Below, piece after piece: positions 43,443 through 56,912 of a stretch of DNA of 64,000 nt; the first letter of the stretch is position 1, and each line of letters opens with the position of its first letter. This stretch comes from Lysobacter sp. yr284 (GTDB lineage: Bacteria; Pseudomonadota; Gammaproteobacteria; Xanthomonadales; Xanthomonadaceae). Under the pieces are notes generated by a model. The model saw only the letters and a program-made list of their open reading frames with translations. It did not search any database and was not told where the DNA came from. The position numbers were made by a program, and so were the translations under genes. Where the stretch lies: the NCBI RefSeq assembly GCF_900107375.1, contig NZ_FNPT01000002.1, positions 368,690 to 432,689 of the forward strand. The letters run 5' to 3'.

Positions 43443-44375
43443 CTACTCGCCCGGCGCCGCCCCCGCCGTGGCCGCGGCCGACGCCTTCTTGCGCGCCAGC
43501 AGCGCCTCGCGATGGGCGATGTACGCGTTCGAGCCGAGGATGATCGCCGCGCCGATCACCGTGTAGCGGTCCAGGCTCTCGTTGAACCACAGCCAGCCGG
43601 CGATCGACACCAGCGGCAGCTGCACGAAGCTGATCGGCGTCAACGCCGAGACTTCGCCGAGCTTGAGCGCATGCGTCCACAGCACCTGGCCGCCGGTGCC
43701 GAACACGCCGGCGGCGGCGATCCACGCCCAGGCGACGCCCTGCGGCCACTGCCACACGAACAGCGCGGGAATCAGCGACATCGGCACCCAGAACGCGTAG
43801 GTGTACAGGACGATGGTGTTGGCCGAGTCGATCCTCGACAACTGCTTGATCTGGATCGAGATCATCCCGCCGAGCACCGCCGCGGCCAGCGCGGCGAGGC
43901 TGTCGACCGAGAACTCGGTCGAGCCGGGGCGCACGATCACCAGCACGCCGAGGAAGCCGGCGGCGACCGCGGCCCAGCGCCGCGCGCGCACCTGTTCGTG
44001 CAGGAACAGCGCCGCGGCGATGGTGACGAAGATCGGGGTGGAGTAGGTCAGCGAGATCGCCTGCGCCAGCGGCAGGTGGCCGATCGCCCAGAACCCGCAC
44101 AGCATCGACACCATGCCGATCGCGCAGCGCACGAAGTACTTGGGCAGCTGGCGGGTGCGCAGTTCGGCGCGGCGCGCGCTCAGCAGCAGCGGCAGCACCG
44201 CCATCAGCCCGAACAGGTTGCGGAAGAACGCGACTTCGAAGGTATGCAGCGATTGCGAGGCCAGGCGGATGGCGATGGCCATGACGCCGAAGCTCAGCGT
44301 GCTCGCCAGCATCAGGCCGGCGGCGCGCATCGGTTGCGTCGGCGCGGGCGCGGCGGCGGGCGCGCCCGCGCTCAC
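43443..44375 (-). CDS. EamA/DMT family transporter
   Basis: A 310-residue inner-membrane transporter with about ten helices and two EamA repeats (GLMLASTLSFGVMAIAIRLA; VLGGMISIQIKQLSR). A GTG at 44375 overlaps the murB stop (GTGA); an ATG at 44330 is an alternative that trims a 15-residue Ala/Pro leader. The cargo is not predictable; many relatives export amino acids or metabolites. The 398 bases before 43443 (43045-43442) show no credible gene. Confidence 0.88.
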   Translation of the reverse strand: MSAGAPAAAPAPTQPMRAAGLMLASTLSFGVMAIAIRLASQSLHTFEVAFFRNLFGLMAVLPLLLSARRAELRTRQLPKYFVRCAIGMVSMLCGFWAIGHLPLAQAISLTYSTPIFVTIAAALFLHEQVRARRWAAVAAGFLGVLVIVRPGSTEFSVDSLAALAAAVLGGMISIQIKQLSRIDSANTIVLYTYAFWVPMSLIPALFVWQWPQGVAWAWIAAAGVFGTGGQVLWTHALKLGEVSALTPISFVQLPLVSIAGWLWFNESLDRYTVIGAAIILGSNAYIAHREALLARKKASAAATAGAAPGE

Positions 44376-45412
44376 CAGCGCGCGCCGACGATGCGCGGTT
44401 CGGGCTCGATCGCCACCCCGAAGCGTTCGCGCACCGAGTCGGCGATGCGGCGGGCGAGGTCGAGCAATTGCGCGCCGCTGGCGCCGCCGTGGTTGACCAG
44501 CACCAGCGCGTGCGCGGCGGAGACGCCGGCGTCGCCGTCGCGGTGGCCCTTCCAGCCGCAGCCGTCGATCAGCCAGGCGGCCGAGAGCTTGCGCGTGGCT
44601 TCGCTGTCGCCGCGGAACGCCGGCATCGACGGGTATTGCGCCAGCAGCGCCTGCGCCTGCGCCGCCGGCACGATCGGGTTCTTGAAGAAGCTGCCGGCGT
44701 TGCCGAGCACGGCCGGGTCGGGCAGCTTGCGCCGGCGGATCGCGATGACCGCCTCGGCGACGTCGCGCGGGGTCGGCGCGGCGACGCCGCGCGCGGCCAG
44801 TTCCTCGCCGATGCCGGCGTAGTCGAGCCTGGGCGCGGCGTGGCGCGGCAGGGCGAATTCGACCGCGGCGATCAGGTAGCGGTCGGCCTCGCGCTTGAAC
44901 CGGCTGTCGCGGTAGCCGAAGGCGCAGGCGGCGTTGTCGAAGCGGTGCCACTGGCCGGTGGCCGGCTCGTAGGCTTCGACCGCATGGATGAACTCGCGCA
45001 CTTCCACGCCGTAGGCGCCGATGTTCTGGATCGGGCAGGCGCCGACGGTGCCCGGGATCAGCGCCAGGTTCTCCAGCCCGGCGTAGCCCTGCTCCAGCGA
45101 CTGCATGACCAGGCCGTGCCAGGGCACGCCGGCGTCGGCGCGCAGGATCGCGCGCTCGCCGTCGTCGTCCAGCGCCTGCACCCGGCGGCCGCTGAGTTCG
45201 AGCACCGCGCCGTGCGGATCGCCGGCGAACAGCAGGTTGCTGCCGCCGCCGATGGCCAGGGCGAGGCCGTCGCGCAGCGGCGGCGCGGCCAGCGCCTCGG
45301 GCAGGGCGCGGGCGTCGTCGACCGACACCAGCCAGGGCGCGCGCGCGGCGACGCCGAAGGTATTGCGGGCTTGCAGCGGCGCATCGCGCACGATGCGGAC
45401 GTTCGGGCTCAT
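44372..45412 (-). CDS. murB: UDP-N-acetylenolpyruvoylglucosamine reductase
   Basis: FAD enzyme making UDP-N-acetylmuramate, the first committed peptidoglycan precursor. The 346-residue type I MurB has RNTFGVAARA near residue 16, LAIGGGSNLLF near 52, the FAD-binding LENLALIPGTVGACPIQNIGAYGVE near 113, CAFGYRDSRFK, the catalytic serine in GNAGSFFKNP near 237 and AAWLIDGCGWKG. Located upstream of the transporter and downstream of pyrD on the minus strand. Confidence 0.96.
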   Translation of the reverse strand: MSPNVRIVRDAPLQARNTFGVAARAPWLVSVDDARALPEALAAPPLRDGLALAIGGGSNLLFAGDPHGAVLELSGRRVQALDDDGERAILRADAGVPWHGLVMQSLEQGYAGLENLALIPGTVGACPIQNIGAYGVEVREFIHAVEAYEPATGQWHRFDNAACAFGYRDSRFKREADRYLIAAVEFALPRHAAPRLDYAGIGEELAARGVAAPTPRDVAEAVIAIRRRKLPDPAVLGNAGSFFKNPIVPAAQAQALLAQYPSMPAFRGDSEATRKLSAAWLIDGCGWKGHRDGDAGVSAAHALVLVNHGGASGAQLLDLARRIADSVRERFGVAIEPEPRIVGARW

Positions 45413-45476
45413 GCGCGCGCGGACTTCTCGTTGGCGGGGGAAAGCGGAATGACGGCGGCTCGGGCGGCGCGGCGGG

Positions 45477-46538
45477 CTACAGGGTGGGCGGCACGTGGCC
45501 GCGGCTGGGGGCTTCCTTGCGCCGGCGGATCGCGTCGACGCATTCGCCGATCAGCGCCGGGCCGCGGTAGACCAGGCCCGAATAGACCTGCACCAGGCTC
45601 GCGCCGGCGGCCATCTTGGTGACCGCGTCGGCGCCGCTGAGGATGCCGCCGACGCCGACCATGGGAATGTGCTCGGGCAGGCGCGTGCGCATCCGCCGCA
45701 GCACCGCGGTGGCCTGGGCCATCAGCGGCCGGCCCGACAGCCCGCCGGCCTCGCCCGCGTGCGCGCTGCCCTCCACGCCTTCGCGCGCCACCGTGGTGTT
45801 GGTGGCGATCACGCCGTCGACCTGCAGCTCGGCCAGCACCCGGCTGGCGGCCTCGATGTCGTCGTCGGACAGGTCCGGGGCGATCTTGACCAGCATCGGC
45901 ACGCGCCGGCCTTCGCGCGCGGCGAAGGTCTCCTGCGCCTCGCGCAGGTTGCCGATCAACCGGCGCAGCGACTGCTCTTCCTGCAGCTCGCGCAGCCCGG
46001 CGGTGTTGGGCGAGGAGATGTTGACGGTGATGTAGTCGGCCAGCGGATAGACCCGCTCCAGGCAGTGCAGGTAATCGCGCTCGGCCTGGTCGTTGGGGGT
46101 GTCCTTGTTCTTGCCGATGTTGATGCCGAGCAGGCCGCCGCCGCGGCGACGGGCCTTGGACACGTTGCGCACCAGCGCGTCGACGCCTTCGTTGTTGAAG
46201 CCCAGGCGGTTGATCACCGCTTGCTGCTCGGGCAGGCGGAACATGCGCGGACGCGGGTTGCCGTCCTGCGCGCGCGGGGTCACGGTGCCGATCTCGACGA
46301 AGCCGAAACCCAGCGCCATCAAGGCGTCGATGTGGGCGCCGTTCTTGTCCAGGCCGGCGGCCAGGCCGACCGGATTGGGAAAGCTCAGGCCCAGCACCTT
46401 GGTCGGCAGCGGCTTGGGCGCGCGCGCCACCAGCGGATTGAGGCCGCTGCGATAAGCCGTTTCCAGCGCGGTGAGGCCGAGGCCGTGGGCTCGTTCGGCG
46501 TCCAGTCCGAACAAAAAGGGGCGGGCGAGGCTATACAC
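45477..46538 (-). CDS. pyrD: Dihydroorotate dehydrogenase (quinone)
   Basis: Class 2 membrane-associated flavoenzyme of pyrimidine synthesis that passes electrons to ubiquinone. The 353-residue protein has the N-terminal membrane-binding helices ([19 protein letters not shown]), [19 protein letters not shown] near residue 55, the catalytic serine in [15 protein letters not shown] near 172, and [29 protein letters not shown] near 295. A GTG start at 46538 gives the usual N-terminus. Confidence 0.96.
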
Positions 46539-46747
46539 GAGTTCGTTGCAGGCCGCTCGGACGGGGGACGCCGATTATCGCCCAATCGATACCGCCCGGG
46601 CGAGCGTGAGCGAACGGTTCTTACGCAGATCGCGGCGGCGGATCGGCCGCTGCCGCCGGCGCGACGGCCGCGGCGTTGCGGCCGCACCTGCGGAGCGGCG
46701 TCCGCGGCGTGCGGGAACCGCGCCGGCCGCGGCCGGCGCGGCGAGGC

Positions 46748-46969
46748 TCAGGCTTCCGGGGCCGGGCAGTCGATCGGGCTCATGCACTGGCCGTAGGCGC
46801 GGTCGCAGGCCTGGGTCTGCGCCTGGTTCTCGGCGTGCAGCAGGCAGTCCTCCCAGACGAAGCGGCAACGCTCGCATTGGTCGATCTGGGCCGAGGCGGT
46901 CAGCGAAGCGGCGAATCCGAAAACGGCCAGGGCCAGGGCGGCCAGGGCGGTGGGCTTGCGCAAGCTCAT
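46748..46969 (-). CDS. Secreted six-cysteine small protein 1
   Basis: A 73-residue exported peptide: signal peptide (ALAALALAVFGFAASLTASA), then a roughly 44-residue mature part with six cysteines spaced C-x2-C-x6-C-x12-C-x6-C-x5-C. The same spacing, apart from the variable middle loop, occurs in three neighbours (48055, 48621 and 48966 starts). GGAGAAA precedes the ATG. Even cysteine number and export suggest three disulfides. No known family recognised. Confidence 0.82.
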   Translation of the reverse strand: MSLRKPTALAALALAVFGFAASLTASAQIDQCERCRFVWEDCLLHAENQAQTQACDRAYGQCMSPIDCPAPEA

Positions 46970-47139
46970 TGGGTTTCTCCGGGTGGATGGGGCGGGTTGG
47001 CGAAGCGCGCACGCGCGACGGCCGGGAGGGTGGCGCGGGCGTTGCGGCGGTGCGCGCGGACGGCGTGGCGCGAACCGACGCGCGTGGCGCCCGCCGCGGC
47101 ACGGCGGATCGCACGGGCGCGGGCCGGCCGCGGCGCGGC

Positions 47140-47262
47140 TCAGGGCTCGATGCGGTCGACCGCTGCGGTCGCCCCGAGCGGGGCGGCGAAACCGAACGCG
47201 GTGGCGGCGAGCGCCGCCAGACGGGCGCGGCGGCGGCCGGCGTTCAACAAGCGCAGTTCCAT
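47140..47262 (-). pseudogene. Truncated member of six-cysteine peptide family
   Basis: A 40-codon reading frame that keeps the family-type signal peptide (RLAALAATAFGFAAPLGATA) and then stops after seven residues, with no cysteine region. No continuation was found in other frames down to 46970. It still carries the 30-bp element found upstream of two intact members, so it looks like a decayed or truncated copy, though a deliberate leader peptide is possible. Confidence 0.6.
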
Positions 47263-47283
47263 TGGGGGTGCGTCCTATGCGTG

Positions 47284-47313
47284 GCGCCAGTCCTTCTGGC
47301 CGGGCCACGCTAG
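47284..47313 (-). promoter_or_regulatory. Conserved 30-bp upstream element, copy 1
   Basis: On the coding strand it runs from CTAGCGTGGCCCGG to GGACTGGCGCC. Contains GCCAG-N5-CTGGC and ends 21 bases before the truncated member's start codon. Confidence 0.75.
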
Positions 47314-47374
47314 TGGCGCCGGCCGGCACCCGGCAAGCTGCGCCGCAGCACGCCGCATCGCTACGCCGGCGCGC

Positions 47375-47665
47375 TCAGTGCTGGCCGGAGAACGCCAGCA
47401 GCGCGGCGATGCCGCCGAAGAACAGCACGATCACCGCCACCGTCAGCACCGCGACGATCACCGACGACCAGCCCAGGATCAGCCCGCCGATGGCGAGGCC
47501 GTCGCCGTCGTAGCGCTGCGGCTCGCGGCGGATCTGCCCGCGCGCGATGTGGCCGGTGACGATCGCGGCGAGGCTGCCGAGGATCGGCAGCAGGGTCCAG
47601 CCGAGGATGCCGGCGATGAGGCTGAGAATGGCCAGGACGTTGGTTTCCCGGACGGGAGCTTGCAT
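47375..47665 (-). CDS. DUF4190 membrane protein
   Basis: A 96-residue protein with two membrane helices (VLAILSLIAGILGWTLLPILGSLAAIVTGHIA and GLAIGGLILGWSSVIVAVLTVAVIVLFFGG) and the hallmark GHIARGQIRREP between them. AAGGA lies 8 bases before the ATG at 47665. DUF4190 proteins are of unknown function. It interrupts the six-cysteine peptide cluster. Confidence 0.88.
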   Translation of the reverse strand: MQAPVRETNVLAILSLIAGILGWTLLPILGSLAAIVTGHIARGQIRREPQRYDGDGLAIGGLILGWSSVIVAVLTVAVIVLFFGGIAALLAFSGQH

Positions 47666-47763
47666 GCGCACGTTCCTTCGCTTGAGTGAAATCGGTCACA
47701 GCATACGGCCCGGGCTGCGTGCGGGCCAGGATCGGGCCGGCGCGAGGCCGCCGACGCGGCCAC

Positions 47764-47794
47764 GAAAAAGCCCGCGGACTCGCGCCCGCGGGCC
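47764..47794 (-). terminator. Terminator of six-cysteine peptide gene 2
   Basis: Stem GCCCGCGG / CCGCGGGC read on the minus strand, followed by TTTTTCG. It lies 31 bases after the stop at 47825. Confidence 0.9.
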
Positions 47795-47824
47795 TGGACG
47801 TCGACGTCCCACGCACGCGCCGGA

Positions 47825-48055
47825 TCAGTACTCCGGCGGCAGGGTGATCATGCAGCCGTTGGACGTCTGGCACTGCCAGAACGCGTTGACGCAACTGTCG
47901 TAATCGCCGCCGGCGTCGCGGCAGCCGTAGTACTCGGGCAAGCAGTGATCGCAGCCGAAGCCGGCGGCGGTCGCCGTCATCGTGGCGGCGAAGCCGAACG
48001 CGGCCAGCGCGAACGCGCCCAGGCGCAGGCGGATGCTACGGTTCCGTGTGTTCAC
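47825..48055 (-). CDS. Secreted six-cysteine small protein 2
   Basis: A 76-residue exported peptide with signal sequence LGAFALAAFGFAATMTATA and a 45-residue mature part spaced C-x2-C-x6-C-x9-C-x6-C-x5-C, ending in a conserved LPPEY tail. A perfect AAGGAGG precedes the GTG at 48055, so I prefer it over the ATG at 48070 that overlaps that ribosome site. Most similar to member 3 (CDxCLxxYYxCR.AGGDY). Confidence 0.87.
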   Translation of the reverse strand: MNTRNRSIRLRLGAFALAAFGFAATMTATAAGFGCDHCLPEYYGCRDAGGDYDSCVNAFWQCQTSNGCMITLPPEY

Positions 48056-48073
48056 AAGACCCTCCTTCATGTG

Positions 48074-48103
48074 TCGCCAGTCCATCTGGCCCGCCCATGC
48101 TAG
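48074..48103 (-). promoter_or_regulatory. Conserved 30-bp upstream element, copy 2
   Basis: Coding strand runs from CTAGCATGGGCGG to GGACTGGCGA, with perfect GCCAG-N5-CTGGC. It ends 18 bases before the GTG of peptide gene 2. TAGCAT may be a -10 box. The rest of the 341-base gap (48056-48396) shows no gene. Confidence 0.78.
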
Positions 48104-48396
48104 GACGGCGCGATGCGGCGCAACGCAAACTGCGTCGCGGTCCGCGAAGACCGCGCATCGTGTTTGCGCGTGCTCGCGCGGTTCGGGTTTTCGGCGGTTC
48201 CTGCAGCGGGCAGCGATCGGCGCGTCGGCGGAACAATCCGTCGTCGAAACGCGGGCGCACGAACGTGCGGATGTCTCGTCGCGATCGGTGCGTCGTTCCG
48301 GCAGCGGTTTCGGCCGGAGAATGCCGCCGCGCCGCGCGCGCAATCGCCTCGCCACCGGCCCGCGCAGTCGCGGACCGGTGGCGAGGCGCACACGGA

Positions 48397-48621
48397 TCAG
48401 ATTTCCGGCGGCAGGCTCAGCGGGCAGCCGTTGGCGCGTTCGCAAGCCCAGAATTCTTCGAGGCAAGCGTTGTAATCGCCGCCGGCGTAGCGGCAGGCGT
48501 AGTACTGATCCAGACATTGATCGCAGCGTGGAACGCCTGCGGTGGCGGTGAGCGCGACGGCGAAGCCGAACGCGGCGAGGGCCAGCGCGGCCAGGCGCGG
48601 GCGGATGCGGCGGATGTTCAT
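48397..48621 (-). CDS. Secreted six-cysteine small protein 3
   Basis: A 74-residue exported peptide: signal RLAALALAAFGFAVALTATA, mature part C-x2-C-x6-C-x9-C-x6-C-x5-C and tail LPPEI. AGGAG lies 6 bases before the ATG. It lacks the 30-bp upstream element found at members 2 and 4, so it may be expressed with member 4 or from another promoter. Confidence 0.87.
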   Translation of the reverse strand: MNIRRIRPRLAALALAAFGFAVALTATAGVPRCDQCLDQYYACRYAGGDYNACLEEFWACERANGCPLSLPPEI

Positions 48622-48747
48622 GACATCTCCTGATGGGTAATGGCGTGGTGATCGCGAAGCGGCGAGACCGGCTTGCGCGCGGGACCCGCGCACAACTGCC
48701 CGCGGATTCGCCTCCGCAGGCCGTTGCGTCGTTGCGGTCGCGCGGAC

Positions 48748-48966
48748 TCAGTCCGGCGGGAAGGTCGGCTGGCAGCGATTGTCGATCTGGCACTGGAACA
48801 ACTGGTCCATGCAACTGGGCTGCGCGTCGGGAGTGTTGTCCCGACATTGGTAGTAGCCCTGCAGGCAGTAATCGCAGTTCGGCAGGCCGGCCGACGCGGT
48901 CAGCGCGGCGGAAAAACCGAATACGCCCAGGGCCACTGCGGTCAAACGGAACATGCGGCGTGACAT
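48748..48966 (-). CDS. Secreted six-cysteine small protein 4
   Basis: A 72-residue exported peptide: signal RLTAVALGVFGFSAALTASA, mature part C-x2-C-x6-C-x10-C-x6-C-x5-C and tail FPPD. AAAAGGAG lies 8 bases before the ATG. The mature region keeps the family frame NCDYCLQGYYQC and LFQCQIDNRC. Confidence 0.87.
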   Translation of the reverse strand: MSRRMFRLTAVALGVFGFSAALTASAGLPNCDYCLQGYYQCRDNTPDAQPSCMDQLFQCQIDNRCQPTFPPD

Positions 48967-48986
48967 CGCGAACGCTCCTTTTCCTG

Positions 48987-49016
48987 TCGCCAGTCCATGT
49001 GGCCCGTCGATGCTAG
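48987..49016 (-). promoter_or_regulatory. Conserved 30-bp upstream element, copy 3
   Basis: Coding strand runs from CTAGCATCGACGG to GGACTGGCGA; the inner palindrome has one mismatched pair (GCCA-N7-TGGC). It ends 20 bases before the ATG of peptide gene 4. Confidence 0.77.
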
Positions 49017-49211
49017 GCGCGTGCGGGCGTCCGGGTCATGTGCGGCCGCGGCGGAATTCACGCGGGGGATCACAGAACGCAGCGCTCGCTGCGGTGCGGC
49101 AGGTGCGGCGGTGTCGGGCGCGGCGGGACGCCCGTGTCCGCAGGCCTCGCCGGCCGCCGCGACCGCGCGTCGCGCGGCGACACGCCTGAGCCAACGGCCG
49201 CGGCGCCGGAC

Positions 49212-50084
49212 TCAGCGTCTTACCGTTGCCTTGCCGTCGGCGATCGCCTGCCGGTAGTCGTATACATCGCGATGGCGGTCGCTGGATTCGCGCAGCAACT
49301 GCGCCGAGTCGATCGGCGGCATCCTTCCGGATCGCAGCGCCTGCTTGTTGGCATGGATGAAGGCGAGGTGCTTGCGCATCGCCACGTCTTGAATTCGGTA
49401 AGAGGTCAGATCGATCCGCCGTGGATCGGCGAAGCCGAGCAGGCCGAGCGTCCAATTCTGGGACTGCGCGGGGCGATCCCTTCTGTAGTTGGCCGATAAG
49501 GCCATGGCACCGAAGACGATGGCGTTGCCGAGCAGAATCCACGACTGGACTTCCACCCAACCGTACTGCCCCGGGCCCGACCACCAGGACGCCAGCCCGA
49601 ACAGCGAAGCCATGCCGAAGTAGCAGCAACAAAACAGCCATAGCGCGAGTTTCCGCTCGGCTTTCGCGTCGGCGGCGCTGCCGCGCGGATGGCGGCTCCA
49701 CAGCCAGCCTTGCTGCGGGTCGAGTATCGCGTACGCACGCAGCGCGTTTCCGCTGCGCGACACCGTGGCTTTCACACGATGGCCCGGTTTGAGCTTGTCG
49801 GCGCCGGCGAATTCGCCGCACACCGGCCGGCCGTCGATCAGGCCGGCGAAGTACTGCGTGTCTTCGACGAAATACAGCGTGCGTTCGATGTCGCTCGCGG
49901 CTTGCGCGAGGGCGCCGTCGATTGGACCGTCTGTGCCGTGGTTGCTGGTTCGATGCGCGATTCGCGACAACAGCCGATCCGGTTCGGCTTCGACCGACAA
50001 TCGATCCAATACGCCTTCGATCAAGAACAGCGCGTCCTCGCGCTGCGGCATCGACGGGTTGCTTTCAGGGACGCCGATCTTCAT
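49212..50084 (-). CDS. Two-helix membrane protein of unknown function
   Basis: A 290-residue protein with a soluble N-terminal domain (about 1-145: EGVLDRLSVEAE, DTQYFAGLIDGRPVCGEF, PGHRVKATVS), two central membrane helices (LALWLFCCCYFGMASLFGLASWW and ILLGNAIVFGAMALSA, residues 150-205), and a C-terminal cytoplasmic tail. The layout resembles proteins annotated elsewhere as putative type VI secretion effectors, but no secretion genes are nearby. It has less G and C than its neighbours, which hints at transfer. Follows the 104-residue gene by 74 bases. Confidence 0.7.
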   Translation of the reverse strand: MKIGVPESNPSMPQREDALFLIEGVLDRLSVEAEPDRLLSRIAHRTSNHGTDGPIDGALAQAASDIERTLYFVEDTQYFAGLIDGRPVCGEFAGADKLKPGHRVKATVSRSGNALRAYAILDPQQGWLWSRHPRGSAADAKAERKLALWLFCCCYFGMASLFGLASWWSGPGQYGWVEVQSWILLGNAIVFGAMALSANYRRDRPAQSQNWTLGLLGFADPRRIDLTSYRIQDVAMRKHLAFIHANKQALRSGRMPPIDSAQLLRESSDRHRDVYDYRQAIADGKATVRR

Positions 50085-50158
50085 GTTCCCTCACCGATGG
50101 CGTGCGCATCCATGTGAAATCCATCGGTCGGGTAGCGAGCGCTCGAAACCGTGTTGGA

Positions 50159-50473
50159 TCAATTGCCCGTATCTTCGCCCGCTCGGCTGGATTCGCTTTC
50201 GAGCGTTACCTCGGTTGGCATCAGGCAAAACCACGGACCGTCTTCGCCGAACCACAGATAGCCGAAGCCATCGATTTCCAGTACTGGACGCACTCGGCCT
50301 TCGACAGCGCGCAGCCGGGCGATGTCTTCCTCGGGAAGATCGTGGATCAATCGCTTCGGCATCGCCGGTATCCGCACGCGGCTGCCTGGGACAACAGGGC
50401 GTCCGCAGGAATCCACCGCCGCCAGGGGAAACCCCGGCGGCAGCGGACTTTGCGGCGGATCGAAGGCGTTCAT
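50159..50473 (-). CDS. Hypothetical protein, partner of the two-helix gene
   Basis: A 104-residue soluble acidic protein (PPQSPLPPGFPLAAVDSCG; RVRIPAMPKRLIHDLPEEDIARL; GYLWFGEDGPWFCLMPTEV). It precedes the two-helix gene on the same strand and may be its partner. No domain recognised. The upstream neighbour, the aldehyde dehydrogenase, ends 17 bases before its start. Confidence 0.65.
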   Translation of the reverse strand: MNAFDPPQSPLPPGFPLAAVDSCGRPVVPGSRVRIPAMPKRLIHDLPEEDIARLRAVEGRVRPVLEIDGFGYLWFGEDGPWFCLMPTEVTLESESSRAGEDTGN

Positions 50474-50490
50474 CGTCCGCCGCGTCGTGC

Positions 50491-52023
50491 TTACAGGTCG
50501 AACTTGATGCCCTGGGCCAGCGGCAACGCGTCGGAGTAGTTGATCGTGTTGGTCTGGCGGCGCATGTAGGCGCGCCACGCGTCGGAACCCGACTCGCGGC
50601 CGCCGCCGGTTTCCTTCTCGCCGCCGAACGCGCCGCCGATCTCGGCGCCGGAGGTGCCGATATTGACGTTGGCGATGCCGCAATCCGAACCCGCCGCCGA
50701 CAGGAACGCTTCGGCGGCCTTGAGGTTGGCGGTGAAGATCGACGAGGACAGGCCCTGCGGCACGTCGTTCTGCAGCGCGATGGCGTCTTCGAGCTTGCTG
50801 AACTTCATCACGTACAGGATCGGCGCGAAGGTTTCGGTCTGCACCACTTCGGCGTCGTTGGTCAGGCCGGTGACGATGGCCGGCAGCACGAAGTTGCCCT
50901 TGCGATCGATGCGCTCGCCGCCGGTCTCGACCTTGCCGCCGCTGGCCTTGGCCTTGGCGATCGCGTCGAGGTAGGCCTGCACGCCGTCCTGGCTGTTGAG
51001 CGGGCCCATCAGATTGGACGGGTCGGTCGGGTCGCCGATCTTCTTCTCGACCTGCTTGTACGCGGCGATCAGCTTGGCCAGCACGTCGTCATGGATCGAC
51101 TCGTGCACGAACAGGCGGCGGGTGGTGGTGCAGCGCTGGCCGGCGGTGCCGACCGCGCCGAACGCGATCGCCGGGATCGCCAGCTTCAGGTCGGCGCTGG
51201 CGTCGACGATGATCGCGTTGTTGCCGCCCAGTTCCAGCAGCGAACGGCCCATGCGGCGGGCGACGCGCTCGCCGACCTGGCGGCCGACCTTGGTCGAGCC
51301 GGTGAAGCTGACCAGGCCGATGCGCTTGTCGTCGACGAAGTTCGAAGCCAGCTCGGTGCCGGCGTCGTTGAACAGGAAGAACAGGTCGGGGAAGCCGCCG
51401 GCGCGCAGCGCCTCGTTGCAGACCTTCATCGACGCGATCGCCGACAGCGGGGTCTTGGGCGAGGGCTTCCAGATGGTGATGTCGCCGCAGATCGCCGCGA
51501 TGAAGCTGTTCCAGGCCCACACCGCGACCGGGAAATTGAACGCCGAGATCACGCCGACGAGGCCGAGCGGATGCCACTGCTCGTACATGCGGTGGCCGGG
51601 ACGCTCGGAGTGCATGGTCAGGCCGTACAGCTGGCGCGACAGGCCGACGGCGAAATCGCCGATGTCGATCATTTCCTGCACTTCGCCGTCGCCCTCGGGC
51701 TTGGACTTGCCCATCTCCAGCGCGACCAGCGAACCCAGCGCGTCCTTGTGCTTGCGCAGCGCGTCGCTGCACAGGCGGATCGCCTCGCCGCGGCGCGGCG
51801 CCGGGGTGGTGCGCCACACCGCGAAGGCGGCCTGGGCGCGTTCGACGATGGTGTCGTAGTCGCTCTGCGAGGACGCCTGCACGCGCGCCAGCACTTCGCC
51901 GTCGGTGGGATTGACGGGCTCCAGCACGCCGGCGTCGGCGGTCTTGGACCATTCGCCGTGGCCGAGGTAGGTGCCGGACTCGTTGTCTTTGAGTCCCAGG
52001 GCGGCGAGAACGGGGTGGGTCAT
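50491..52023 (-). CDS. Antiquitin-type aldehyde dehydrogenase (ALDH7)
   Basis: A 510-residue aldehyde dehydrogenase of the ALDH7/antiquitin family, which oxidises alpha-aminoadipic semialdehyde (lysine catabolism) and related aldehydes. The catalytic cysteine is in [12 protein letters not shown] near residue 300, the glutamate in [10 protein letters not shown] near 266. The antiquitin-type segments [39 protein letters not shown]-like [20 protein letters not shown], and [23 protein letters not shown] are clear. The ATG at 52023 gives [11 protein letters not shown]. Confidence 0.92.
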
Positions 52024-52470: not shown

Positions 52471-52655
52471 GGGGAGATACGTCTGGATTTCCAGGCGGCA
52501 AGACGTCCGGACGACCGAGCCGAAGGGGGACGGTCGTGGACGGTAGCAGGCCGGGCGGTCGCGCCCGGCACGCATTTGGGGCGCGCCGCAGCTCGGCGTC
52601 GCCAGGGGTTACGGGATGGCCGCAGCGCCTGGGGGCGCTGCGTCGGGGGACAACC

Positions 52656-55600
52656 ATGATCGGTTCGATGAGAAGGGCGGTGCGCTCAGGCGCGCTGGCG
52701 CCCGCGAGTGCGGGCTTGCAGGTGCGCGAGGGCCGCCGCGGCGCGGCGTGGTGGGCGGGGTGGCTGCTGTTGCCGGGCCTGGGCCTGGCCGGCGCGGCGC
52801 AGGCGCAAAGCTGCGCGGTCGGCGAGACCCCGGCGGCGTTCGGCTTCACCGGCGGCGAGCAGACCGCGACGGTGCCGGCCGGCGTGCAATCGCTCACCGT
52901 CTACCTCAGCGGCGCCCAGGGCGGGGCCGGGCGCGGCGGCGCCGGCACCATCGGCGGCAGTCCCAATTCGCCTGGCGGCACCGGCGGCCTCGGCGGCCGG
53001 GTGCGCGGCACCCTGGCGGTGACCCCCGGCCAGACCTTGTCGATCTGGGTCGGCGGGCAGGCCTCGCAGGCGGTCAATCCCGGCGGCATCGGCCAGGGCG
53101 TCGACGGCATCGGCGGCGGCGCCACCGACCTGCGCACCAACGGCAACGGCATCGGCAACCGCGTCGCCATCGCCGGCGGCGGCGGCGGCGGCGGCAACGC
53201 CGGCTGGAGCACCGCCAACGTCATTGCCGGCGGCGCCGGCGGCGTCGGCGGCGGCGGCACCGGCGGCAGTGGCGCGACCGTGCCCGGCGGCCCCGGCCCG
53301 TTCGGCGGCGGCGGCGGTGCGGTCGGCACCGGCGGCACCGCAGGCCCCGGTTGCAACAACTACCCGGCCACGGTCGGCAACGCCGCCAACGGCAACGGCG
53401 GCGACTCGTTCAACTTCTCCGGTTCCTTCAGCGGCGCCGGTTTCGGCGGCGGCGGCGGCGGCGGCGCCACGGTCGGCGCGGGCGGCGGCGGCGCGGGCGT
53501 GGGCACCACCGCGTGCCAGCAGAACTGGAACGGCGGCGGCGGCGGCGGTGCGGGCGGCAGCTCGGCCGCGATCGGCCTGAACGCGGTCACGATCAACAAC
53601 GGCGTGCAGGCCGGCAACGGCGCGGCGCTGATCTGCTTCGCGTCGCCGACCTTCTCGGTCGGCGGCACCGCGGGCAGCCAGACCGGCCCGGTCACCCTGC
53701 AACTGGCCTCGACCAACCCGGCCGGCAGCCAGCAGGTGGTCGTGGCCCAGGCCGCGACCAGCTTCGTCTTCCCGACCCGCTTGCCGCAGGGCGCCAACTG
53801 GAACCTCAGCGTGCTCAGCTCGCCGGCCGGACAGATCTGTACGGCGGCCCCGGCCAGCGGCGCGGCGATCGCCGCGAACGTCACCAACATCGCGCTCGTC
53901 TGCACCACCGTGACGGTCACGGTGGCGCCGGCGACGTTGCCGGCCGGCGCGCTCAGCGCGCCGTATTCGCAAACGCTGTCCGCCACCAGCGCCAACGGCG
54001 GCAACGCGCCGTACACGTTCGCGACCAGCGCCGGCGCCTTGCCGCCCGGCCTGGCCTTGTCGAGCGCGGGCGTGCTGTCGGGCACGCCGACCGCCGCGGG
54101 CTCGTTCAACTTCACCGTGCAGGCGACCGCCAGCAACGGCTTCAGCGGCACCCGCGCCTACACCCTGGCGATCGCGCAGGCCGGCCAGACGATCACGGCG
54201 TTCGCCGCGAATCCGGCCGCGCCGACCTATGCGCCGGGCGGTACGTTCAGCGTGTCCGCAACCGGCGGCGCGTCCGGCAATCCGGTCGTGTTCGCCAGCG
54301 CCAGCCCGGCGGTGTGCACCGTCGCCGGCAGCACCGTCACCACCGTCGCCGCGGGCGCGTGTTCGCTGACCGCCAACCAGGCCGGCAACGCCAACTACAG
54401 CGCCGCGCCGCAGGCCTCGCTGGCCGTCGCCATCGGCCAGGCCGCGCAGACCATCAGCGGCTTCGCCTCGAATCCGGCCGCGCCGGTGTACGCCCCGGGC
54501 GGCAGCTTCACCGTGTCCGCGACCGGCGGCGCATCCGGCAATCCGGTCACCTTCGCCAGCACCAGCACCGGCGTGTGCACGATCAGCGGCAACACCGCGA
54601 CGATCGTCGCCGCCGGCACCTGCGCGCTGAGCGCCGACCAGGCCGGCAACGCCAACTACTCCGCCGCGCCGCAAGCGAGCTTCACCGTCGGCATCGGCGC
54701 GGCGACGCAGTCGATCAGCAACTTCGCCGCCAACCCGGGCTCGCCGGTGTACGCGCCGGGCGGCAGCTTCGCCGTCTCGGCCACGCCGGGCCTGTCGACC
54801 AGCCCGGTGGTGTTCGCCAGCGCCAGCCCGGCGGTGTGCAGCGTCGCCGGCAGCGCGGTGACCACGCTCGCCGCGGGCACCTGTTCGCTGACCGCGAACC
54901 AGGCCGCCGACGCCAACTACAGCGCTTCGCCGCAGGTGACGCTGGATGTGACCATCGCCCTGGCCGCGCAGGCCATCAGCGGCTTCGCCGCGAATCCGGC
55001 CGCGCCGGTGTTCGCCGCCGGCGGCAGCTTCAGCGTGTCGGCCTCGCCGGGCGCTTCGACCAGCCCGGTGGTGTTCGCCAGCGCCACGGCCGCGGTGTGT
55101 ACGGTCAGCGGCAGCAGCGTGACCATGCTCAGCGCCGGCCAGTGTTCGCTGACCGCGAACCAGGCCGCCGACGCCAACTACAGCGCGGCGCCGCAAGCGA
55201 CGCTGGACGTGACCATCGGCGCCGCGGCGCAGACCATCACCGGCTTCGCCGCCAACCCGGCCGCGCCGGTGTACACGCCGGGCGGCAGCTTCAGCGTGTC
55301 GGCGGCCGGCGGCCCCTCGGGCAACCCGGTCGTGTTCGCCAGCGCGTCGCCGGCGGTGTGCACGGTCAGCGGCAGCACCGTGACCATGCTCGCCGCGGGC
55401 AACTGCGCGCTGACTGCCGACCAGGCCGGCAACGCCAACTACACCGCCGCGCCGCAAGTCGCGCTGCAGGTGCTGATCGGCGGCGCCACCCCGCAATTGA
55501 GCTGGATCGGCGATATCGCCAAGACCTACGGCGAAGCTGCGTTCGACCTGCCGAACCCGAGCAGCAACAGCGCCGGCGCCTTCACCTTCGCCAGCGACAA

Positions 55601-56912
55601 CGCCGCGGTGGCGACCGTCAGCGGCCGCCGCGTGACCATCGTCGGCGCCGGCGTGGCGACGCTCACCGCGACCCAGGCGGCGACGCCGAACTATCTGCAA
55701 GGCAGCATCAGCCTGGTGTTGACCGTGTCCGGCCGGCCCGACCCGACCCGCGATCCCAGCGTGGTCGGCGGCCTGCAGGCGCAGACCGACGCCGCGGTCC
55801 GCTTCGCCACGGCGCAGCAGTCCAACATCAACGACCGCCTGCGCCAGCAGCGCTATGCCGGCGCCAACCGCACCAGCAACGGCATCGCGCTGAGCTACAA
55901 CACCCGCGCCGGCGGCGGCATGTCGCTGAGCGGCGAGCAGATCGCGCAGATCGACGGCTCGCGCCTGCCGCAAGGCTGGGGCCTGTGGACGGCCGGCACC
56001 GTCAGCAACGGCCAGCGCGACCGCAACGCGCGCAGCGACGGCTTCGACTTCCAGAGCGACGGCATCACCGTCGGCGCCGACTGGCGCATCGGCGAGCGCT
56101 TCCTGCTCGGCGTGGCCGGCGGCTACGGCTGGAACGACACCGACCTCGACGACGGCCGCTCCAAGCTCGAAGCCCGCCAGCGCGCGTTGTCGCTGTACGG
56201 CCTGTGGCGCCCGAGCGAGCGCTGGTTCGTCGACGGCACCCTCGGCTGGGGCCGGCTGGACTACGACATCCGCCGCTACAGCGCCACCGCCGGCGCCATC
56301 GCCACCGCCGATCGCGAAGGCGACCAGGTGTTCGGTTCGCTCACCGCCGGCTACGAGCACGGCAGCGCCAGTGGCCTGCTGCTGACCGGTTACGGCCGCC
56401 TCGACGGCAGCCGCACCAAGCTCGACGGCTACCGCGAAACCGGGCTGGGCATCTACGACCTGAACTACGGTTCGCAGACCGTGGAAAACAGCGGCGCCGC
56501 GCTCGGCCTGGAAGGCAGCTTCCCGATCCTGACCACGCGCGGCAACGTGTTCCGCCCGTACTGGACGATCGAGTACCGGCAAGCGCTGGAGGACCGCAGC
56601 GACGTGCGCTTGAACTACGTGATCCTGCCGGCCGCCAGCGACTACCTGCTGCGGCTGCGCAGCTACGGCGACAACGCGCTGAGCTACGGCGCGGGCCTGG
56701 ACATGGAACTGGCGCAGCGCTGGCGCCTGTCGCTGCTGCTGCGTCGCCAGCACGCCAGCGGCCTGGATGCCGGCACCAGCTTCGGCCTGTTGCTGTCGTA
56801 CTCGCCGGGCAGCGTGCGCGTCGGCGCGGCCGCTGCCGCGGCCGCGGACGGCGACGCAGCGGTGGCGCAGGCGGCGACGCAGTCGACCGGAAGCAACGAC
56901 GCCGGCCGCTGA
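52656..56912 (+). CDS. Giant autotransporter with tandem Ig-like repeats
   Basis: A 1418-residue type V secreted surface protein. A long signal region ends near AAQAQS (about residue 50). A glycine-rich domain (about 60-340), a putative Ig-like domain (about 425-505), five 87-residue tandem repeats (509-943) each with two cysteines, and a degenerate sixth repeat follow. A C-terminal autotransporter beta-barrel spans about 1110-1385. Oddly, the last strand (SFGLLLSYSPGSVRVGA) is followed by a roughly 30-residue Ala-rich tail instead of ending the protein. GGGGA precedes the ATG. Probable adhesin or predation factor. Confidence 0.88.
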   Translation: MIGSMRRAVRSGALAPASAGLQVREGRRGAAWWAGWLLLPGLGLAGAAQAQSCAVGETPAAFGFTGGEQTATVPAGVQSLTVYLSGAQGGAGRGGAGTIGGSPNSPGGTGGLGGRVRGTLAVTPGQTLSIWVGGQASQAVNPGGIGQGVDGIGGGATDLRTNGNGIGNRVAIAGGGGGGGNAGWSTANVIAGGAGGVGGGGTGGSGATVPGGPGPFGGGGGAVGTGGTAGPGCNNYPATVGNAANGNGGDSFNFSGSFSGAGFGGGGGGGATVGAGGGGAGVGTTACQQNWNGGGGGGAGGSSAAIGLNAVTINNGVQAGNGAALICFASPTFSVGGTAGSQTGPVTLQLASTNPAGSQQVVVAQAATSFVFPTRLPQGANWNLSVLSSPAGQICTAAPASGAAIAANVTNIALVCTTVTVTVAPATLPAGALSAPYSQTLSATSANGGNAPYTFATSAGALPPGLALSSAGVLSGTPTAAGSFNFTVQATASNGFSGTRAYTLAIAQAGQTITAFAANPAAPTYAPGGTFSVSATGGASGNPVVFASASPAVCTVAGSTVTTVAAGACSLTANQAGNANYSAAPQASLAVAIGQAAQTISGFASNPAAPVYAPGGSFTVSATGGASGNPVTFASTSTGVCTISGNTATIVAAGTCALSADQAGNANYSAAPQASFTVGIGAATQSISNFAANPGSPVYAPGGSFAVSATPGLSTSPVVFASASPAVCSVAGSAVTTLAAGTCSLTANQAADANYSASPQVTLDVTIALAAQAISGFAANPAAPVFAAGGSFSVSASPGASTSPVVFASATAAVCTVSGSSVTMLSAGQCSLTANQAADANYSAAPQATLDVTIGAAAQTITGFAANPAAPVYTPGGSFSVSAAGGPSGNPVVFASASPAVCTVSGSTVTMLAAGNCALTADQAGNANYTAAPQVALQVLIGGATPQLSWIGDIAKTYGEAAFDLPNPSSNSAGAFTFASDNAAVATVSGRRVTIVGAGVATLTATQAATPNYLQGSISLVLTVSGRPDPTRDPSVVGGLQAQTDAAVRFATAQQSNINDRLRQQRYAGANRTSNGIALSYNTRAGGGMSLSGEQIAQIDGSRLPQGWGLWTAGTVSNGQRDRNARSDGFDFQSDGITVGADWRIGERFLLGVAGGYGWNDTDLDDGRSKLEARQRALSLYGLWRPSERWFVDGTLGWGRLDYDIRRYSATAGAIATADREGDQVFGSLTAGYEHGSASGLLLTGYGRLDGSRTKLDGYRETGLGIYDLNYGSQTVENSGAALGLEGSFPILTTRGNVFRPYWTIEYRQALEDRSDVRLNYVILPAASDYLLRLRSYGDNALSYGAGLDMELAQRWRLSLLLRRQHASGLDAGTSFGLLLSYSPGSVRVGAAAAAAADGDAAVAQAATQSTGSNDAGR
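54180..55484 (+). repeat. Five 261-bp coding repeats in autotransporter
   Basis: Head-to-tail 87-codon units beginning at 54180, 54441, 54702, 54963 and 55224. Core: TI.GFA.NPAAPVYAPGGSF, FASASPAVCTV and AG.CSLTANQAG-NANYSAAPQ. Units pair by subtype: 1, 2 and 5 have GASGNP-type turns, 3 and 4 have STSP, suggesting stepwise duplication. Confidence 0.95.

What the first reader, a model, noticed from the sequence alone, without database searches (positions are those of the whole stretch)
46748..48966. Cluster of secreted peptides with strict C-x2-C-x6-C-x9/12-C-x6-C-x5-C pattern
Four intact genes within 2.2 kb encode 72-76 residue exported proteins whose mature parts share invariant spacing of six cysteines except for one variable loop (9, 9, 10 and 12 residues). 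Signal peptides are also alike (FGFA..LTA.A). I do not recognise any known toxin, defensin or bacteriocin family. Predatory Lysobacter could use them as antimicrobial, metal-binding or signalling peptides.
Basis: partly seen in the sequence, partly recalled or inferred. Interest (0 to 1): 0.8.

Follow-up and report, generated by a model that had tools for sequence, protein, structure and literature searches.

The report
Multigene family of secreted disulfide-hairpin peptides
A predatory soil bacterium carries about 25 copies of an undescribed kind of small exported peptide, predicted to be two helices stapled together by disulfide bonds, and some copies carry an RNA tag typical of a known switch for exoproducts; what the peptides do is still unknown.

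Summary
In detail: four intact minus-strand genes with Cys spacings 2-6-12-6-5, 2-6-9-6-5, 2-6-9-6-5 and 2-6-10-6-5; shuffled windows give none. A fifth copy (47140-47262) kept its signal peptide but lost the Cys domain; copies with that domain exist in other genomes of the genus. The genes belong to a large dispersed family: at least 25 copies at 14 places in this genome, 20 of 20 genus genomes (1-36 matches each), 28 of 250 in the order, none convincing beyond it in the samples searched. The two inner C-x6-C spacings are near-constant; the outer ones vary. No profile library gave a match at E <= 0.001. AlphaFold2 gives a two-helix hairpin (pLDDT 90 and 87), the core geometry of glycocin bacteriocins, but with a Sec-type signal and no SunS enzyme over cut-off. 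A leader hairpin with an ANGGA loop (CsrA/RsmA-type site) has 24 matches in the genus, all directly before a family gene. Best reading: RsmA-controlled secreted antagonism peptides. Family and genes are shown; export, fold and control are predicted; function is inferred.

The parts
46748..46969 (-). twin C-x6-C secreted peptide gene, loop 12 (2-6-12-6-5)
   Evidence: pairs with L. enzymogenes L049:8142-8381 in a tree; model of mature part pLDDT 87
47140..47262 (-). remnant copy: signal peptide followed directly by the last three residues of the ortholog; Cys domain lost, frame kept
   Evidence: copies with the Cys domain in Lysobacter sp. Root690 (L050), G138 and G777
47825..48055 (-). twin C-x6-C secreted peptide gene, GTG start, loop 9
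   Evidence: counterpart L049:7305-7535
48397..48621 (-). twin C-x6-C secreted peptide gene, loop 9
   Evidence: counterpart L049:6001-6225, 88% identity; model of mature part pLDDT 90
48748..48966 (-). twin C-x6-C secreted peptide gene, loop 10
   Evidence: counterpart L049:5276-5494, 99% identity
48073..48103 (-). conserved promoter/leader element of the 47825 gene: TAGCAT -10-like box, then hairpin GCCAG-AUGGA-CUGGC
48986..49016 (-). same element before the 48748 gene (closing pair of the hairpin is C.C here, 4-bp stem)
47285..47312 (-). same element before the remnant 47140-47262, loop AAGGA
47375..47671 (-). DUF4190 small membrane protein lying inside the cluster; a look-alike lies inside it in L049, L050, L051 and L098; possible partner
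   Evidence: by eye; Pfam, window copy only

Best explanation
The genes encode Sec-exported precursors of 4-5 kDa peptides that fold into a two-helix hairpin stapled by three nested disulfides (C3-C4 next to the turn, C2-C5, C1-C6). They belong to a lineage-specific multigene family that changes in size by tandem duplication and loss. At least part of the cluster is transcribed from a conserved promoter whose mRNA starts with a small hairpin showing ANGGA in its loop, followed by a second GGA in the ribosome-binding site, so translation is probably held back by RsmA/CsrA and released when the cell makes exoproducts. The most likely role is that of secreted antagonism factors used in predation or competition: disulfide-stapled hairpins, stable among Lysobacter's own proteases, that bind a specific target in other microbes rather than dissolving membranes. 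Shown by sequence: genes, Cys pattern, family, differing copy numbers, leader element. Predicted: export, fold, disulfide pairing, RsmA control. Inferred only: release outside the cell and antagonistic function.
For: Cys pattern and signal peptides. At least 25 copies at 14 places in this genome; 20 of 20 genus genomes, 1-36 matches each. Cluster size differs between relatives: 4 plus a remnant here, 7 in L. enzymogenes ATCC 29487, 2 in ISL-50, 1 in L. antibioticus 13-6, each within the 12-kb stretch held, 5 in G173. AlphaFold2 hairpin, H3-17 and H22-35, pLDDT 90.3, pTM 0.70; second member H2-18 and H22-36, pLDDT 87.1, pTM 0.62. Cys 5, 8, 15 / 25, 32, 38 of the mature 48397 peptide (numbering) lie opposite each other in such a hairpin. 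Same nested twin C-x6-C core as glycocin F (Cys5-Cys28, Cys12-Cys21: PMC5890784, passages). Leader: 24 matches in 15 of 20 genus genomes, 0 for the backward control; all 24 lie directly before a family gene, one of them the remnant; loop ANGGA with N = T, A or C; 14 of 48 leaders have the motif directly closed by 5 bp or more, against 0.31% of 20,000 random 73-nt stretches; two CsrA-family genes over cut-off in the genome; ANGGAX on a stem is the high-affinity Csr/Rsm site (PMC4005645, passages).
Against: No direct evidence for secretion beyond the periplasm, for toxicity or for a target. No immunity, transporter or modifying gene was recognised next to the copies whose surroundings were read by eye, though these were not profile-searched. 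Selection is purifying, with no sign of an arms race. The leader element precedes only 3 of 26 genes of this genome, counting the remnant and a weak 4-bp case. Folding energies of five leaders are unremarkable (z -0.36 to -0.91) and one of the five (47140) is predicted to fold differently. Only one compensatory base-pair change was seen, and 34 of 500 shuffles did as well, so a DNA operator is not excluded. Foldseek found no solved structure at E <= 0.001.
Confidence: 0.42

Rival explanations
1. Secreted but not toxic: the hairpins are protease inhibitors or binding modules that protect the cell or its exoenzymes, like plant helical-hairpin trypsin inhibitors.
For: Small disulfide-stapled hairpins, acidic in the window's four; Lysobacter is rich in secreted proteases (recalled); purifying selection.
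Against: No conserved inhibitory loop residue: the C3-C4 stretch varies from x4 to x17 and in sequence.
Confidence: 0.2
2. Periplasmic redox, metal-buffering or envelope-stress peptides that remain in the cell.
For: Six cysteines and a Sec-type signal peptide; one of 25 family members had a weak BufA2 metallophore match (E 0.045).
Against: C1-x2-C2 is not conserved (x1 to x7); the two MNIO enzymes of the genome lie about 34 kb or more from the copies found; the nested geometry suits structural disulfides.
Confidence: 0.2
3. Signals or recognition ligands, for example towards fungal or plant hosts or kin.
For: Paralog diversity with a common scaffold.
Against: No receptor or partner gene was seen to recur near the copies read by eye; occurrence in genomes of several families of the order does not point to one host.
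Confidence: 0.13
4. The leader palindrome is a DNA operator, or only a 5'-end mRNA stabiliser, and has nothing to do with RsmA (this can hold together with any of the functions above).
For: Stem GCCAG/CTGGC hardly varies; weak covariation; unremarkable folding energy; one dispersed paralog (L093) has the same stem with a loop lacking GGA.
Against: The non-symmetrical centre A-N-G-G-A is conserved at four of five positions while N changes, which a dyad operator would not require.
Confidence: 0.35

Closest known systems
Glycocins (glycocin F, sublancin; three-disulfide thermoglycocin/orniglycocin)
   Same: Two helices joined by nested disulfides with C-x6-C on each helix; glycocin F pairs Cys5-Cys28 and Cys12-Cys21 (PMC5890784, passages); thermoglycocin adds a third disulfide (PMC12457901, passages).
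   Different: Here a Sec-type signal instead of a leader cut by a C39 peptidase-transporter, no SunS-type glycosyltransferase over cut-off in the genome, a third pair bracketing the hairpin instead of a C-terminal loop, many paralogs; no glycocin among the PDB sequence hits.
CHCH / twin CX9C mitochondrial proteins and cytochrome bc1 subunit 6 (hinge protein)
   Same: Disulfide-stapled helical hairpin (recalled); only sub-threshold sequence hits (TRIAP1 E 2.1; bc1 subunit 6 E 1.8).
   Different: CX9C spacing (recalled), mitochondrial, no Sec signal; no significant similarity.
Plant alpha-hairpinins (helical-hairpin inhibitors and antimicrobials)
   Same: Small secreted two-disulfide helical hairpins (recalled).
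   Different: CX3C spacing (recalled), plants only; not compared here.
Bufferins (BufA metallophores)
   Same: Small Cys-containing peptides with Sec signals in proteobacteria (recalled); one weak NCBIfam match, E 0.045.
   Different: No MNIO (PF05114) partner next to a copy.
Csr/Rsm-controlled mRNA leaders
   Same: ANGGA in a hairpin loop upstream of a GGA-containing ribosome-binding site (PMC4005645, passages).
   Different: Binding untested; mostly a pentaloop with a G-C closing pair rather than the ANGGAX hexaloop consensus (the paper notes AAGGA and AGGGA pentaloops also bind well).

Membership tests
Glycocin | C-x6-C ... C-x6-C on two antiparallel helices | tested here: met
   Spacing in all four genes; two-helix hairpin predicted for two of them. 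Disulfides themselves not tested.
Glycocin | Leader removed by a C39 peptidase-transporter at GG (or GK) | tested here: not met
   The N-terminus reads as a Sec-type signal with an AxA site before the mature part and no GG or GK there. A C39 gene was not searched for.
Glycocin | SunS-type peptide glycosyltransferase in the genome or cluster | tested here: not met
   TIGR04195: one match at 30.7 bits against a cut-off of 350; of 14 control genomes 10 ring, 1 over cut-off.
Glycocin | S- or O-glycosylated residue | not testable with these tools
   Needs mass spectrometry.
Glycocin | Fold match to solved glycocin structures | tested here: inconclusive
   Foldseek and VIA-align 2 list no glycocin, but an unlisted family is not excluded, least of all for a 46-residue hairpin.
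Bufferin metallophore | MNIO enzyme (PF05114) next to the precursor | tested here: not met
   Two MNIO genes at C32:821103 and C32:452260; nearest family copy found on that contig is about 34 kb away.
CHCH / twin CX9C | Twin CX9C | tested here: not met
   x6 in all four genes.
Lepto_8Cys (TIGR04453) | Score over curated cut-off | tested here: not met
   One dispersed paralog: 19.4 bits, E 0.0011, cut-off 34; none of the four window genes.
Any Pfam, NCBIfam or PHROGs family | Match of a window gene over cut-off or with a clear E-value | tested here: not met
   Pfam none; NCBIfam two for the 46748 gene far below cut-off (best E 0.0061); PHROGs best E 0.31.
Csr/Rsm target mRNA | ANGGA in a hairpin loop plus GGA at the ribosome-binding site | tested here: met
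   Genes 47825 (5-bp stem) and 48748 (4-bp stem) and the remnant; not 46748 or 48397; 24 genus-wide matches.
Csr/Rsm target mRNA | Binding and regulation by RsmA/CsrA | not testable with these tools
   Two CsrA-family genes present; no binding data.

The most novel reading that the evidence does not exclude
A new class of unmodified, glycocin-like bacteriocins of Gram-negative predators: dozens of Sec/DsbA-made disulfide-stapled helical hairpins per genome, under RsmA control, acting together as a venom-like cocktail against prey.
Probability: 0.22. Interest if true: 0.85.

Novelty: new variant of a known kind. Interest (0 to 1): 0.56.

Why it matters
Lysobacter is studied as a predator and biocontrol agent through its lytic enzymes, antibiotics and contact-dependent secretion systems (recalled); a large undescribed family of small secreted peptides present in all 20 genus genomes searched would add a whole layer to that arsenal. 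If the hairpins are active, they offer stable scaffolds unlike cationic antimicrobial peptides, and the RsmA-type leader gives a ready way to switch some of them on. Even if they are not toxic, they are a clean family for annotation, since none of the profile libraries used here has a fitting model.

Tried and rejected
Sequence libraries: Pfam, NCBIfam and PHROGs gave nothing useful for the window genes, and only scattered one-member names, best E 0.008 and 0.0011, for the 25-member alignment. PDB sequences: none significant. Fold search: nothing at E <= 0.001; the best VIA-align Z was 4.2, ordinary for helical pairs, and only Foldseek's 39 chains were compared. Viral contigs: 168 stretches matched a peptide pattern, none encoded a relative. 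Plasmids: no match for the 48397 protein. Bufferin and glycocin enzymes: see membership tests. Positive selection in the mature part: not seen; dN/dS is below 1 in all 14 pairs compared, with the highest about 0.82 (47825 against L049) and 0.71 (L049:6504 against L051, probably not orthologs). Leader core in the own genome with up to 3 mismatches: 9 matches against 20 for the backward control, so only the three with 0-2 mismatches, all in the cluster, count. Rfam: no family over its gathering score in 44000-51000. Literature: seven of the ten searches were on the peptides or on glycocin hairpins and showed no description of this family in what they listed; two searches listed only 20 of 1,041 and 15 of 380 papers. 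The other three were on glycocin/CX6C (52), CsrA (77) and RsmA in Lysobacter (78). PMC12510463 was opened for Lysobacter predation and seen in passages only; it gave nothing on these peptides.

Rows left out and slips: hits L011 (the remnant), L019 and L020 (no twin Cys core) were left out of the family lists made; alignment A2 holds 25 sequences, chosen from the 45 printed (some with longer N-termini). One search read minus-strand loci in the wrong orientation and was replaced. One search read locus L079 at the wrong place; one search shows that it does have the twin core, so the count is 24 of 27. In one search the gene starts given for L085, L097:3772, L049:6510 and L100:4890 were approximate, and L098 and L099 were not included. 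Some mature ends were cut by rule and fall inside the Cys part (for example the first L083 gene, L095, L096), so those charges are rough. The first L049 row of alignment A6 was cut short.
Full report
Observation. Four intact minus-strand genes lie at the stated coordinates with six cysteines each and spacings 2-6-12-6-5 (46748-46969), 2-6-9-6-5 (47825-48055), 2-6-9-6-5 (48397-48621) and 2-6-10-6-5 (48748-48966). A six-frame scan of the 64 kb finds only these four; a looser scan for twin C-x6-C behind a hydrophobic N-terminus finds the same four, a mean of 0 in 20 codon-shuffled windows and 0 in the reversed window. The signal parts are alike and end in AxA before the mature part. SignalP was not available, so export is a rule-of-thumb prediction.

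A fifth copy. At 47140-47262 the same kind of signal peptide runs directly into the last three residues of its ortholog and stops; no cysteine is left. Copies with the Cys domain exist in Lysobacter sp. Root690 (L050), in G138 and in G777. The loss keeps the frame and takes out the Cys domain.

Where it is. The closest named record is Lysobacter enzymogenes ATCC 29487 (88% identity). The cluster lies between aldehyde dehydrogenase and dihydroorotate dehydrogenase/murB genes. Similar flanks and a DUF4190 look-alike inside the cluster are seen, by eye from translated ORFs, in L049, L050, L051 and L098. The scan gives 7 family genes in the L. enzymogenes stretch, 4 in Root690, 2 in ISL-50 and 1 in L. 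antibioticus 13-6, and 5 in G173; it demands exact x6 spacings and misses a C-x7-C copy in Root690. In a tree of 28 sequences each window gene pairs with one L. enzymogenes gene, three of the four pairs with starred support, so these duplications are probably older than the split; whether the extra L. enzymogenes genes are gains there or losses here was not settled.

The family. A profile search of the own genome gave 24 matches at E <= 10 with the narrow alignment and 27 at E <= 0.001 with the broader A2. In 14 further regions around such hits the scan found 21 copies in 13 regions (none in L091), 25 with the window's four, at 14 places, four of the regions holding tandem groups of two or four; copies elsewhere may have been missed. 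In the genus 20 of 20 genomes matched, with 1 to 36 matches each. In the family 21 of 198 matched with the narrow alignment A1 at E <= 0.01. In the order 28 of 250 matched with A2; of the 27 best loci outside the own genome, 24 show the twin C-x6-C core and 3 do not. In the class sample 2 of 369 matched, both from the same family as the window. In the phylum sample 5 of 398 matched, 4 from the same family and one on the signal peptide of an unrelated CxxCH protein. These larger searches score only the best 15 to 29 candidates per genome, so absence is less firm there. The two x6 spacings hold in most copies; one ortholog group (G116, G770, G776, G777, Root690, G138) has C2-x7-C3. C1-C2 ranges from x1 to x7, C3-C4 from x4 to x17, and C5-C6 mostly from x3 to x10, with single exceptions.

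Not a described family. No library gave a match at E <= 0.001, nor did the PDB sequences; PHROGs was tried with the four window genes only. Seven paper searches bearing on the peptides or on hairpin bacteriocins listed no description of it; two of them listed only the top of long hit lists, and many subscription papers are outside that library.

Fold. From 18 sequences of the window and four named loci, AlphaFold2 gives two helices, residues 3-17 and 22-35, mean pLDDT 90.3. The most divergent window member, with the same 18 sequences, gives 2-18 and 22-36, pLDDT 87.1. Fold searches gave no significant match, which says little for a 46-residue hairpin.

Likeness to glycocins. Glycocin F has Cys5-Cys28 and Cys12-Cys21 (PMC5890784, passages), that is C-x6-C on each helix with nested bonds; three-disulfide glycocins exist (PMC12457901, passages); reducing and alkylating the bonds abolishes activity in pallidocin (PMC6405829, passages). 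The scaffold is therefore one that can work as a bacteriocin. Membership fails: Sec-type signal, no SunS over cut-off. I treat it as a convergent scaffold.

Leader. The 47825 and 48748 genes and the remnant share CTAGCRT, then after about six bases GCCA(G/C)-ANGGA-CTGGC ending 20-23 bases before the start codon. In the own genome only these three sites match the 20-base core with two mismatches or fewer; at three mismatches the pattern is at background. Genus-wide the pattern TAGSRTGN{4,8}CCASANGGACTGG has 24 matches in 15 of 20 genomes and 0 for the backward control; all 24 lie directly before a family gene, 23 with the Cys domain and one the remnant. N is T, A or C. An ANGGAX loop on a stem is the high-affinity Csr/Rsm site, and AAGGA pentaloops are reported to bind well (PMC4005645, passages). 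The genome has two CsrA-family genes. Against: folding z-scores of -0.36 to -0.91 and one of five leaders folding otherwise; one compensatory change only, reached by 34 of 500 shuffles, although 89.8% of cells pair against at most 35.2% in slid controls; a mismatched closing pair before 48748; no such leader before the dispersed copies or before 46748 and 48397. The claim is limited to part of the cluster.

Function. The four window peptides are acidic (net -4 to -5), but over 25 own copies 16 are negative, 5 neutral and 4 positive, so membrane lysis is unlikely for the former only. Metal buffering is disfavoured by the variable outer cysteines and the absence of a nearby MNIO enzyme. Selection is purifying. 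Counts of 16-36 matches occur only in genomes of about 5.9 Mb or more, though other genomes of about that size hold 6-8. RsmA-type control, export, disulfide stapling and differing paralog sets together favour secreted antagonism or competition factors; this is inference, and a protective inhibitor or a periplasmic role remains open.

Verdict. A real, apparently undescribed, multigene family; ordinary in that small secreted Cys-rich families are a known kind, unusual in size, restriction to one order in the samples searched, scaffold and leader. Function is open and testable.

Noticed in passing
window 47375-47671 (-): DUF4190 small membrane protein sits inside the peptide cluster here, and look-alikes do so in L049, L050, L051 and L098; it could be a partner such as an immunity protein, or just a neighbour.
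   Followed up: partly
upstream of 47825 (about 48135-48146, -) and of cluster genes in L049, L050, L051, L052: A second short palindrome, CGCGG-A-CCGCG or CGCAG-A-CTGCG, recurs about 30-40 bases upstream of the TAGCRT box; in L051 and L052 one arm deviates. Possible activator site (read by eye).
   Followed up: no
L084:4669 and 5461 leaders; L090; L096; L093: Dispersed paralogs have other small hairpins before the ribosome-binding site (GCCC-N6-GGGC type; in L093 GCCAG-AACGAT-CTGGC), without GGA in the loop (by eye).
   Followed up: no
window 52536-56912 (+): Long ORF of 1458 codons with tandem repeats and a C-terminal part that looks like an autotransporter barrel (by eye).
   Followed up: no
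G000:C32:765141-766693 (L084): A tandem group of four family members whose mature parts have eight cysteines; three of them end in C-x3-C-x1-C after the twin C-x6-C core.
   Followed up: partly
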